Shown piece after piece: positions 6,226 to 57,947 of a DNA stretch of 64,000 nucleotides; position 1 is the first letter of the stretch; each line of letters opens with the position of its first letter. The notes beneath the pieces are model-generated. The model made no database searches. It saw only the letters and a program-made list of their open reading frames with translations, and was not told the DNA's origin. This stretch comes from Chloroflexota bacterium (GTDB lineage: Bacteria > Chloroflexota > Chloroflexia > Chloroflexales > Herpetosiphonaceae). The stretch is taken from the NCBI GenBank assembly GCA_020161265.1, contig JAIUOC010000002.1, forward strand, positions 496,001-560,000, read 5' to 3'. Both the position numbers and the translations under genes were made by a program.

Positions 6226-6340
6226 AGGGTCAGGGTTTAGAGGCCAAGGGTCAAAATACTGAAGAATAAAGATAGAAGTCAAAAATCAAAAAATATAAGG
6301 GCCAAGGATTTTAACCCAGAGGCTCTAGGCTATCGGCATA
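6226..6340. repeat. Degenerate 7-nt-period array after the Cas6-like gene
   Basis: Reads as consecutive degenerate heptamers: GGGTCAG GGTTTAG, AGGCCAA GGGTCAA, AAGATAG AAGTCAA AAATCAA. It continues as AAGGGCCAAGG and then a GGCTCTAGGCTATCGG block similar to those at 9769 and 51219. No coding sequence. It fills most of the 243-bp gap before the next stop codon. See the findings on heptamer arrays. Confidence 0.6.
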
Positions 6341-9737: not shown

Positions 9738-9904
9738 AGGTTTTGATCCACGAAGGGCACGAAATAAGGCTATGGGCTTTCGGCTTTTGATATCCCAACC
9801 TACTCCCGATAGCCCATAGCCTATACGCAGCTGCGTTAGAGCCTTGTGCCTGAAACCGACCACTCCTATGCTCTATGTTCTATGTTCTTTGCTCTATGTT
9901 CTAT
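9738..9904. repeat. Intergenic short-period repeat block
   Basis: Contains a CACGAAGGGCACGAAAT unit (9-nt period), a GGCTATG GGCTTTC GGCTTTT heptamer run (from about 9768) and a clear heptamer array CTATGTT CTATGTT CTTTGCT CTATGTT (9872-9899) that runs up to the stop codon of the lipoprotein gene. Nothing else is seen in the 292 bp between the two minus-strand genes. Confidence 0.65.
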
Positions 9905-15198: not shown

Positions 15199-15282
15199 AC
15201 AGGCTCCTTGCATGATGCCAATCATTGCATCATTACTACCGCTCCTAATAATCTCGTTGTTAATGTACTACAAAATGGATAA

Positions 15283-15384
15283 GAACATAGAGCAAAGAAC
15301 ATAGGGGATTGTAATTTTAACCACGAAGAACACGAAGAGCACGAAGCATAATTTTTTATGCTCTATGCTCTATGTTCTATGTTC
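15283..15384. repeat. Composite repeat: facing heptamer arrays around a 9-nt-period array
   Basis: Left arm GAACATA GAGCAAA GAACATA (15283-15303), centre CACGAAGAA CACGAAGAG CACGAAGC (15322-15347), right arm TATGCTC TATGCTC TATGTTC TATGTTC (15357-15384). The arms are inverted copies of one another's unit (GAACATA / TATGTTC). It fills most of the 198-bp gap between the amidase and phosphatase genes. Confidence 0.7.
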
Positions 15385-15396
15385 TCATTCCCCGAT

Positions 15397-19916: not shown

Positions 19917-19953
19917 GGAAGGATGAGGGATGAGGGATGAAGGATGAAAGAGG
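19917..19953. repeat. GGATGAR heptamer array upstream of malQ
   Basis: GGATGAG GGATGAG GGATGAA GGATGAA in perfect 7-nt phase. The same unit occurs at 49709 and 50110. The rest of the 275-bp gap between malQ and the STAS gene shows no feature I can support. Confidence 0.75.
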
Positions 19954-35277: not shown

Positions 35278-35493
35278 CCACGAAGGACACAAAGCGCACA
35301 AAGAATGAAACCGCGAAGAACCCGAAGCTATTGAGCCACAAATTTTACTAAAGGCAGTTTTAGCCACAGATTATGCTGCTTATGCTGCTGTTCCCTCTGT
35401 ACTTACTAGATTCTCGCTGCTCATCCTGACCCCTAATCCCTGAATCCTGACCCCTTGTGTTCTTTTTGCCTTCTGTATTTTGCCTTTTGACTT
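35278..35493. repeat. Repeat-rich intergenic block before rseP
   Basis: In a 377-bp gene-free stretch: a 9-nt-period CACGAAGGACACAAAGCGCA tract (from 35278), a GC-poor spacer, heptamers CCTGACC CCTAATC CCTGAAT CCTGACC (35425-35452) and CTTTTTG CCTTCTG TATTTTG CCTTTTG (35462-35489). All runs keep a strict 7-nt frame. No gene is present. Confidence 0.7.
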
Positions 35494-49689: not shown

Positions 49690-49708
49690 AAGAAAACTCC
49701 TCAATACA

Positions 49709-49788
49709 GGGATGAAGGATGAAGGATGAGGGATGAAATAGTCAGGTCTTAGCAAACTTCATAATTCATAATTCATCCTTCATCCTTT
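49709..49788. repeat. Facing heptamer arrays just upstream of thrS
   Basis: GGATGAA GGATGAA GGATGAG GGATGAA (49710-49737) and ATAATTC ATAATTC ATCCTTC ATCCTTT (49760-49787). The two arms are inverted (GGATGAA / TTCATCC), so the RNA or single-stranded DNA could fold. The block makes up most of the gap between thrS and the 74-residue gene. Confidence 0.75.
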
Positions 49789-49793
49789 AAAAG

Positions 49794-50018
49794 TTACCAA
49801 CATGGCATGAGATGGCGTGGGGCTTCAGGTTGGTGGGCCAAATCGCGCTGATAGACCAATTTGAGCATGGCGGCGCGATACTCAGCACTTTCGATCAGTT
49901 GCCAACCTTCGGCGAGTAATTGCGACTCCATCGCGGCGCGGTCGGGCCATTCGCGAGCCTCGGCAGCACAGGGAGCATCGCCCTGAACTGGGGCATAGGC
50001 AATTAAATATTCCAACAT
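49794..50018 (-). CDS. Small protein of unknown function in the thrS operon
   Basis: 74 residues, soluble, acidic and Trp-containing (REWPDRAAMESQLLAEGWQL, EYRAAMLKLVYQR). No family recognised. AAAGGAG 8 nt before ATG 50018. Both sides are repeat blocks, but the gene itself is not repetitive. Confidence 0.6.
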   Translation of the reverse strand: MLEYLIAYAPVQGDAPCAAEAREWPDRAAMESQLLAEGWQLIESAEYRAAMLKLVYQRDLAHQPEAPRHLMPCW

Positions 50019-50085
50019 TGTTCTGCTCCTTTAAGTGATTAATTGGGTCAGTATCACTTTCGTCCAGAACGATCACCCCCTTCTG

Positions 50086-50193
50086 AAATTATGAATTATG
50101 AAGGACGAAGGATGAAGCATCCAATCATTGATAGATTCAAGAATCGATGGAGATCAAACATTTTCATCCCTCATCCCTCATAATTCATCCTTG
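50086..50193. repeat. Facing heptamer arrays in the thrS operon
   Basis: AATTATG AATTATG AAGGACG AAGGATG AAGCATC (about 50087-50121) and TTCATCC CTCATCC CTCATAA TTCATCC (50163-50190), mutually inverted. They lie between two co-oriented genes, so the operon transcript would carry the repeat. Confidence 0.75.
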
Positions 50194-50826: not shown

Positions 50827-51074
50827 AAAAAAGCCCCGTCCATCACACATAGGACGAAGGCAAACATAAACCTCGTGGTTCCACCTAATTTCCAAATTAG
50901 CAAGCACTAATTTGCTTAAGTTGTCCGTTAGCGGGGACAAAGCGCATCGGTCTACTAGCCATATGGCGTTGGGCGATGAACTCAGAGGGGGTATTGTTTG
51001 CATCCGTGCCAGCAACGCTCCCAATCTATGGCGCTGCTTCCCTGATGGTGTGATTCAAACAACATGGCCTCATC
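50827..51074 (-). promoter_or_regulatory. T-box riboswitch, specifier ACC (threonine)
   Basis: Minus strand, leader of the operon ending in thrS. The T-box itself is GGTGGAACCACG (50874-50885). Stem I is recognisable: GATGA/TCATC at the base, helix TTGTTTG/CAAACAA above, and in the 3' side of the internal loop AATACCCCC with the likely specifier ACC (50990-50992), a threonine codon. It is followed by a terminator (GTCC...GGAC stem, then TTTTTT at 50827-50832). Uncharged tRNA-Thr should stabilise the antiterminator and raise expression. Confidence 0.85.
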
Positions 51075-51100
51075 ACAGTTGGGCTATTGAATTGTGCTAG

Positions 51101-51130: not shown

Positions 51131-51198
51131 TCCGCCGTTTGAATGAGGTTTAATGCTGAGCGATTCTTGGCTGTATTACACAATTGTAAGCCGTATTT

Positions 51199-51248
51199 AA
51201 CGCAGAGACGCAGAGAACGGATGGCTATAGGTTTTGGGCTATCGGAAG
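51199..51248. repeat. Short-period repeat block upstream of the AlkD-like gene
   Basis: AACGCAGAG ACGCAGAG (8-nt period, 51199-51214) then GGCTATA GGTTTTG GGCTATC GGAAG (7-nt period, 51223-51248). The unit CGCAGAG recurs at 62576-62627 and the GGCTATR unit near 9768. Confidence 0.6.
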
Positions 51249-57688: not shown

Positions 57689-57947
57689 AGCACAATACAT
57701 TGAATCAAGAGAACTTACATATTCATACTACAACTCTGATTTTGAATATACCATTATATTATGGGTCTCCCCAAATTGACCTTTAGGGGGTGCAGGGGGA
57801 TGAAAACACCCTGCGTTTCCCTCCAGCGGAGGGACGGAAGGGAGGAGATCTATAAAATCAATAAACTCTCCATAAATTATCCACATTGATCAACGCCTTG
57901 AGCGAGAGTGCTATACTGAGCATATTCTATTTGGTGGAGGTTGTAGC
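57689..57947. other. Non-coding gap between chitinase terminator and M24 gene
   Basis: AT-rich except for the two GC-rich hairpins listed next. No frame with a ribosome site. Confidence 0.5.
57792..57833. repeat. Two GC-rich palindromes, REP-like
   Basis: GCAGGG/CCCTGC (57792-57797, 57809-57814) with an 11-nt loop and CCCTCC/GGAGGG (57819-57824, 57828-57833) with a 3-nt loop, in an AT-rich gap. No T-run directly follows, so a terminator is unlikely. They may be a dispersed REP-like element; no second copy is in this window. Confidence 0.4.

What the first reader, a model, noticed from the sequence alone, without database searches (positions are those of the whole stretch)
49709..50193. Heptamer (7-nt period) repeat arrays in intergenic DNA, often in facing inverted pairs
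Units such as GGATGAR, TTCATCC and AATTATG repeat in strict 7-nt phase in the thrS operon gaps, and other heptamer families occur at 6226, 9768, 9872, 15283, 15357, 19917, 35425 and 51223. Several blocks face each other in inverted order. This is the style of the short tandem repeats (STRR) in filamentous heterocystous cyanobacteria but in a distant phylum. They are absent from genes and are transcribed inside at least one operon.
Basis: partly seen in the sequence, partly recalled or inferred. Interest (0 to 1): 0.62.

Follow-up and report, generated by a model that had tools for sequence, protein, structure and literature searches.

The report
Polar heptamer modules at gene borders
Between its genes this filamentous bacterium (a Herpetosiphon) carries hundreds of about 30-letter DNA signs, each built mostly from four 7-letter words and nearly always pointing out of the neighbouring gene; related species often swap the wording at the same spot but keep the sign, which rules out the usual explanations and leaves the purpose open.

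Summary
In 447 kb of this Herpetosiphon genome period 7 is the only tandem period in clear excess (35 runs; 0-2 at periods 5, 8, 10, 11, 13). The thrS-operon gaps hold four arms of exactly 4 x 7 bp. They are not ordinary slippage arrays. In five Herpetosiphon genomes (1.59 Mb) I find 621 phrase hits of nine families (22 in reversed-sequence controls). This polarity creates the 'facing pairs'. The two halves of a gap pair no better than halves of unrelated gaps (p = 0.22). Orthologous gaps keep a module (27 shared, 6 discordant) while its family may be replaced, at two gaps on both arms at once (A/A to B/B). Period and facing order recur in other phyla. Closest known: Xanthomonas/Nostoc GGGNATC heptamers (Rehm 2015), explained there by G-quadruplexes; here families without G-runs obey the same rules. 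Function is not shown; a direction-sensitive gene-boundary element is my best guess.

The parts
49710..49737 (+). family A module, 4 units, left arm of facing pair in the gap between thrS and the 74-aa ORF
49758..49785 (-). family A module, 4 units, right arm of the same pair
   Evidence: RNA fold z -6.6
50089..50116 (+). family A module, 4 units, left arm in the gap between the 74-aa and the 201-aa ORF
50163..50190 (-). family A module, 4 units, right arm of the same pair
   Evidence: RNA fold z -6.1
9741..9763 (+). family F phrase (TTGATC leader plus CACGAAG 9-mers)
9768..9788 (+). family D module (GGCTATG GGCTTTC GGCTTTT)
9809..9826 (-). family D counterpart (GATAGCCCATAGCCTATA) facing 9768
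9867..9901 (-). family C module, 5 units (AGAACAT/AGAGCAA on the minus strand)
15282..15302 (+). family C module, 3 units, left arm
   Evidence: RNA fold of 15279-15390 z -6.1
15315..15346 (+). family F phrase, leader TTTTAAC plus three CACGAAG 9-mers, inside the loop
15358..15385 (-). family C module, 4 units, right arm
19921..19948 (+). family A module, 4 units, single arm
35412..35446 (-). family E words (CCTGACC/CCTAATC)
35461..35490 (-). family B words (TTTTGCC/TTTTGAC)
51197..51216 (+). family G phrase TTTAACGCAGAGACGCAGAG
51224..51246 (+). family D words (GGCTATAGGTTTTGGGCTATCGG)

Best explanation
SHOWN: the repeats are copies of a polar intergenic module of about 30 bp. It has several interchangeable sequence families: A GGATGAR/TTATGAA, B AGTCAAA/AGGCAAA, C AGAACAT, D GGCTATA and E GGGRTCA, mostly about four heptamers each; F, three CACGAAG 9-mers with a TT[GA]A[TA]C leader; G, H and I, shorter. 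Modules sit beside genes with the purine-rich strand reading out of the gene into the gap, whether the gene end is a start or a stop. Occupied gaps stay occupied between species while the family may be replaced. INFERRED: a rule that ignores the heptamer's sequence, treats starts and stops alike and does not need pairing points to a direction-sensitive gene-boundary element. Any polymerase leaving a gene, at either end, would transcribe purine-rich RNA from the module; one entering a gene would transcribe pyrimidine-rich RNA. I propose that modules hinder transcription running out of genes (read-through at stops, antisense at starts) while letting it in, and that selection keeps length and polarity. 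Words and whole families would be exchanged by copying between dispersed modules.
For: Period-7 specificity. 621 phrase hits against 22 in reversed sequence. Unit caps: A has four units in 68 of 120 arms and five or more in 14; C four in 46 of 91; B four in 21 of 49; F three units 114, four units 3, leader in 86 of 114. Polarity 315:60, starts 156:19, stops 159:41, each family alone in the same direction. First/last sign of multi-phrase gaps (+,-) 118 and (-,+) 1. Convergent gaps, which have no start codons, also 26:7. Phrase-free gaps show no such skew. Pairing not above permuted partners. Occupancy conserved: 27 both, 128 neither, 6 discordant, no shared family in 7 of 27. A/A to B/B swaps at the gap at 49708 and at C2:322045. 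At 49708 and 50085 the gene between the two gaps follows the species relationships while both gaps do not. Other phyla: facing order 48:3, and 18:2 without family A.
Against: No expression data could be used. Modules also lie inside the T-box-thrS operon, where a strong block would be costly. Family match between the two arms is somewhat above chance (34 observed, 24 expected; outermost heptamer pairs 31 against 19), which a purely directional element does not need. Large clusters have internal order violations (26 '-+' against 143 '+-'). Family D has no clear four-unit mode. Arrays with far more than four units exist in G014.
Confidence: 0.33

Rival explanations
1. Polymerase slippage: 7 nt suits the polymerase footprint, so heptamers multiply as neutral simple sequence repeats (the proposal of Mrazek et al. 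2007 as quoted in PMC4679880 and PMC4692102).
For: Period 7 is singled out here and in loci of other phyla (102 runs against 22 at period 8 and 18 at period 9). Long runs exist in G014 and G028.
Against: Unit number is capped with a mode of four instead of falling off from two. Slippage predicts no polarity relative to gene borders, no family swaps at fixed gaps, and no 9-mer family with a fixed leader and three units.
Confidence: 0.15
2. Hairpin mobile elements: the arms are terminal inverted repeats of REP- or MITE-like elements that insert into gaps and into each other.
For: Facing pairs with the same family (A/A 16, D/D 7). Strong hairpins at thrS. Dispersed composite copies.
Against: Loops of A/A pairs at different sites share no interior. 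Single arms are common and keep polarity. Left and right halves pair no better than permuted halves. No clean insertion with target duplication among the discordant orthologous gaps inspected. Next to no '-+' side-by-side order in this genome.
Confidence: 0.2
3. G-quadruplex elements, as proposed for GGGNATC repeats: four units because four G-tracts are needed.
For: Families A, D and E start with GG; the four-unit mode is as in Xanthomonas (PMC4692102).
Against: Families B (17 of 21 four-unit arms have no GG word) and C (46 of 46) keep the four-unit mode and the polarity; in A only 18 of 68 four-unit arms have four GG words.
Confidence: 0.03
4. Repeat addition at broken DNA ends by a telomerase-like reverse transcriptase or similar: both 3' ends at a break in the gap are extended with the purine phrase and rejoined, giving [+][-] order. 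Bacterial DRT10 shows that such repeat-adding RTs exist (PMC12632851).
For: Predicts the polarity, the unmatched families on the two sides, and a fixed 5' leader with a ragged 3' end.
Against: Ku is absent from all 41 genomes of the order. G018, G029 and G037 have heptamer-word hits but no RVT_1 hit. The conserved 800-aa RT gene of Herpetosiphon is also in G007 and G016, where 55-60 kb samples hold no arrays. No template RNA identified.
Confidence: 0.08
5. Binding sites of a post-transcriptional or nucleoid protein with repeated 7-nt contacts, as suggested for TAACTGA repeats.
For: Fixed number of units; the inner word of four-unit A arms is almost always GGATGAA (56 of 68).
Against: Start and stop ends are occupied with mirror polarity, unlike TAACTGA, which sits just upstream of starts (PMC4679880). 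Families with no common core replace each other at one site.
Confidence: 0.12

Closest known systems
G-rich heptameric repeats GGGNATC of Xanthomonas and GGGGA(T/C)T of Nostoc (Rehm et al. 2015, PMC4692102)
   Same: 7-nt units with a mode of four, intergenic, frequent convergent pairs (in Xanthomonas), position close to the neighbouring ORF with the G-rich strand reading away from it whatever the ORF orientation, most sites conserved between species, function unknown.
   Different: Here at least five heptamer families and several 8-10-mer families coexist; two heptamer families have no G-tracts; families replace each other at orthologous gaps; stem pairing was tested against permuted partners and is not the rule.
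STRR heptanucleotide repeats of heterocystous cyanobacteria (reported for Calothrix PCC 7601; cited in PMC4692102)
   Same: Several tandem heptanucleotide families in one genome.
   Different: Different phylum; unit cap and polarity are not described there as far as I could read.
TAACTGA repeats of Beggiatoaceae, Cyanobacteria and Bacteroidetes (MacGregor 2015, PMC4679880)
   Same: Abundant intergenic heptamers shared by distant phyla, in Microcystis mixed with other heptamers.
   Different: TAACTGA sits mostly just upstream of starts in one orientation in the Beggiatoaceae; the modules here mark both gene ends with mirror polarity.
Four-heptanucleotide elements and paired opposite-strand repeat sites of Geobacter metallireducens (PMC2700814)
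   Same: Four tandem heptamers; other sites with four octamers or five heptamers in pairs on opposite strands at variable distance.
   Different: The GGACCGG elements also lie inside genes; interpreted as regulator sites; polarity relative to genes not analysed.
DRT10 / telomerase repeat-adding reverse transcriptases (PMC12632851)
   Same: Make short tandem repeats (9 nt) from an RNA template.
   Different: No reverse transcriptase tracks the arrays here.

Membership tests
Rehm-type heptameric gene-border repeats | mode of four heptamer units | tested here: met
   A 68/120, C 46/91, B 21/49, E 17/36; D weak, 21/100
Rehm-type heptameric gene-border repeats | G-rich strand reads away from the nearest ORF whatever its orientation | tested here: met
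   315:60, all families
Rehm-type heptameric gene-border repeats | convergent inverted pairs, sites conserved between related species | tested here: met
Rehm-type heptameric gene-border repeats | GGGNATC-like word with G-tracts able to form G-quadruplexes | tested here: not met
   families B and C lack GG words
STRR | tandem heptanucleotides dispersed between genes | tested here: met
STRR | heterocystous cyanobacterial host | tested here: not met
   host is a Herpetosiphon: same-genus relative G001 has the contig length of CP000875, H. aurantiacus DSM 785
STRR | the published STRR words | not tested
   the published words were not available to me
MITE/REP mobile element | shared interior, defined ends, target duplication at empty sites | tested here: not met
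   interiors differ; no clean empty site found among the gaps inspected
Classical simple sequence repeat made by slippage | open-ended, falling unit-number distribution | tested here: not met
Telomerase/DRT10-type repeat addition | dedicated reverse transcriptase present wherever arrays are | tested here: not met
   G018, G029, G037 have array-word hits and no RVT_1
RNA hairpin element (terminator or processing site) | arms of one gap pair better than arms of different gaps | tested here: inconclusive
   overall not (27.0 against 26.1 +/- 1.2, p 0.22), but individual pairs such as thrS fold strongly

The most novel reading that the evidence does not exclude
Many bacterial phyla use a sequence-independent punctuation mark at gene borders: polar modules of about 30 bp whose period, unit number and purine polarity matter while the heptamer word does not, acting as one-way barriers to transcription leaving genes, with word families replaced in place by an unknown copying process.
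Probability: 0.2. Interest if true: 0.85.

Novelty: new variant of a known kind. Interest (0 to 1): 0.56.

Why it matters
Over-representation of heptamers in bacterial genomes has been noted since 2007 without an agreed cause; the proposals were polymerase footprint, G-quadruplexes and regulator binding. Herpetosiphon offers a natural experiment: several unrelated word families obey the same length and polarity rules and replace each other at the same gaps. What is conserved is therefore separated from what is not. That excludes G-quadruplexes as the general cause, demotes hairpins and plain slippage, and gives a directly testable question about direction-dependent transcription at gene borders.

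Tried and rejected
RT/telomerase-like generator: RVT_1 does not track arrays. End-joining by Ku: Ku absent from the order. G-quadruplex: see families B and C. RNA hairpin as the general rule: halves of a gap pair no better than permuted halves (in the smaller sets G003 alone was somewhat above, G000 not). Copying of one arm from the other word by word: in the genus the word order of the two arms is not more alike than permuted (p 0.31 outer, 0.99 inner), whereas arms in other phyla are. Translation-only selection (avoiding AAGGATG-like starts upstream of genes): does not explain convergent gaps or the stop side. General base skew of gaps: absent from phrase-free gaps. Clean insertion sites or target duplications: none seen in discordant gaps. 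Published papers containing the phrase sequences: none in the held library.

Full report
What is there. The window lies in G000, a 6.04 Mb Herpetosiphon-like genome at C2:496001-560000. One same-genus relative, G001, has the contig length of the H. aurantiacus DSM 785 chromosome CP000875. The two thrS-operon gaps carry four arms of exactly 28 bp: 49710-49737 facing 49758-49785, and 50089-50116 facing 50163-50190. The operon reads T-box leader (50847-51085 minus; RF00230 at 53.3 bits, below the gathering score of 93), 201-aa ORF, 74-aa ORF, thrS.

More than chance. Tandem runs at period 7 stand alone: 7 runs in the window; 35 in 447 kb of contig C2 against 0-2 at periods 5, 8, 10, 11 and 13; the 13 at period 9 and those at 18 and 21 I put down to coding repeats and multiples. 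The pattern GGATGAAGGATGAAGGATGA with up to two mismatches occurs 334 times in the genome and its reversed control never. All five same-genus genomes have it; in the rest of the order it is patchy. Some order members instead have arrays of other heptamers, for example AGGAGAT in G028, and the reversed control word itself hits in G028, G029, G034 and G037.

Vocabulary. Reading the gaps gave nine phrase families. On the purine-rich strand these are A GGATGAR/TTATGAA, B AGTCAAA/AGGCAAA/AGGCAGA, C AGAACAT/AGAGCAT/AGAGCAA, D GGCTATA/GGCTTTT, E GGGGTCA/GGGATCA, F CACGAAGNN (9-mer), G CGCAGAGN (8-mer), H CACAGATN2-3 and I CGCGAAGNN. In 1.59 Mb from five Herpetosiphon genomes they give 621 phrase hits, against 22 in reversed sequence; 34 lie in predicted genes. 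A further family, J (CCCTCACCCC), has the opposite base polarity and is kept apart.

Not open-ended arrays. Family A arms have 2, 3, 4, 5, and 6 or more units in 16, 22, 68, 7 and 7 cases; C in 18, 14, 46, 7 and 6; B and E also peak at four, D does not. Arms in gaps of one sign only also peak at four, though less sharply. F has three 9-mer units in 114 cases and four in 3, with a fixed 5' leader T[GA]A[TA]C or similar in 86 of the 114 and no conserved 3' flank. Both kinds come to about 30 bp. Arms of families without G-runs (C: 46 of 46; B: 17 of 21) keep the four-unit mode, so the G-quadruplex reason given for the Xanthomonas/Nostoc repeats (PMC4692102) does not hold here.

Polarity. Relative to the nearest predicted gene end, the purine-rich strand reads into the gap in 315 cases and towards the gene in 60. 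It holds at starts (156:19) and stops (159:41), and for each family: A 103:16, B 42:7, C 81:9, D 58:24, E 31:4. In gaps with several phrases the first and last signs are (+,-) in 118 and (-,+) in 1. In this genome alone every multi-phrase cluster listed runs plus then minus, leaving family J aside (a slightly different motif scan, finds one '-+' neighbour pair against 16 '+-'). Convergent gaps behave alike, 26:7, so avoidance of spurious ribosome sites upstream of genes cannot be the whole reason. Gaps without phrases show no such skew. Caveats: gene calls are my own dicodon calls, the families were read from these same gaps, and orthologous gaps of several species are counted more than once in pooled numbers; the single-genome numbers and the family-free scan of other phyla point the same way.

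Facing pairs and hairpins. The thrS pairs fold strongly (z -6.6, -6.1), as does 15279-15390 (z -6.1); orthologous pairs in relatives fold less strongly (z -2.2 to -3.5). In general, however, the left part of a gap pairs with its own right part no better than with the right part of another gap (27.0 against 26.1, sd 1.2, p 0.22, n 108). Innermost facing families match 34 of 143 times (24 expected, p 0.01); outermost heptamer pairs match 31 of 59 (18.8 expected). Polarity is thus the rule, and hairpins are partly a consequence of it plus the shared vocabulary.

Between species. At the gap 49708-49788, G000, G002 and G005 have A/A while G001, G003 and G004 have B/B at the same point. At 50085-50192 the same split is A/A against B left, C right. 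The 74-aa gene between the two gaps follows the species relationships (about 93-96% to G001 and G003, about 80-83% to the others), so the replacement is confined to the gaps. G000 and G002 share about 26 nt of inner arm and loop, so alleles are old or exchanged. A second A/A to B/B change is at C2:322045 in G004. Over 161 orthologous gaps of G000 and G003, 27 are occupied in both, 128 in neither and 6 in one; 7 of the 27 share no family. No clean empty site with target duplication was found.

Other phyla. Outside the selected spots those loci still show 102 period-7 runs against 22 at period 8 and 18 at period 9, and neighbouring arrays are purine-left/pyrimidine-right 48:3, or 18:2 when neither is family A. 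These loci were fetched through family A, so they say that the rule recurs, not how common it is.

Mechanism. I sought a maker. Ku is missing in all 41 genomes of the order. RVT_1 is absent from G018, G029 and G037, which have heptamer-word hits, and present in G007 and G016, whose samples hold none. That leaves selection or copying. A rule that ignores the word, treats starts and stops as mirror images and does not require pairing fits an element sensed by something moving out of genes. I therefore propose a one-way boundary acting on outgoing transcription, with exchange of words and families by copying between dispersed modules. The structural statements are shown; the function is inferred, with low to moderate confidence.

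Comparison. Rehm et al. described four of these properties (four units, convergent pairs, orientation to the nearest ORF, conserved sites) for one word family per genome and left the function open. The thrS modules are therefore a new variant of a known kind. What is added is the independence from the word, the in-place family replacement, the unit cap in a 9-mer family, the test of pairing, and recurrence of the facing order across phyla.

Noticed in passing
57768-57850: A dispersed repeat of about 80 bp (TTGACCTTTAGGGGGTGCAGGGGG...) with many copies at 85-97% identity in every Herpetosiphon genome searched; MITE-like, unrelated to the heptamers.
   Followed up: no
G000:C2:191964-194363 (minus), L208: An 800-aa protein with a reverse-transcriptase domain (RVT_1, E 1e-13), one per genome in all six Herpetosiphon and in G007 and G016; from memory it may be the cellular 'rvt' gene type.
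   Followed up: partly
G000:C1:1-400000 (L128-L147): Nearly free of period-7 arrays (4 in 400 kb) although other parts of the genome have one every 10-15 kb.
   Followed up: no
50847-51085 (minus): T-box leader of the thrS operon, clear by E-value but well below Rfam's gathering score, so divergent.
   Followed up: partly
G003 L156 near 13800; many gaps of G003: Family J palindromes (CCCTCACCCC...GGGGTGAGGG) inserted inside heptamer arms, flanked by TAATGGTTTAT/ATAAACCATTA; 43 motif hits in G003 against 6 in G000, with opposite purine polarity.
   Followed up: no
L225 5537-5699, L226 11819-12055 (G014): A relative in the same order has family A arrays of about 20 or more units, some at contig starts; the four-unit cap is lost there.
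   Followed up: no
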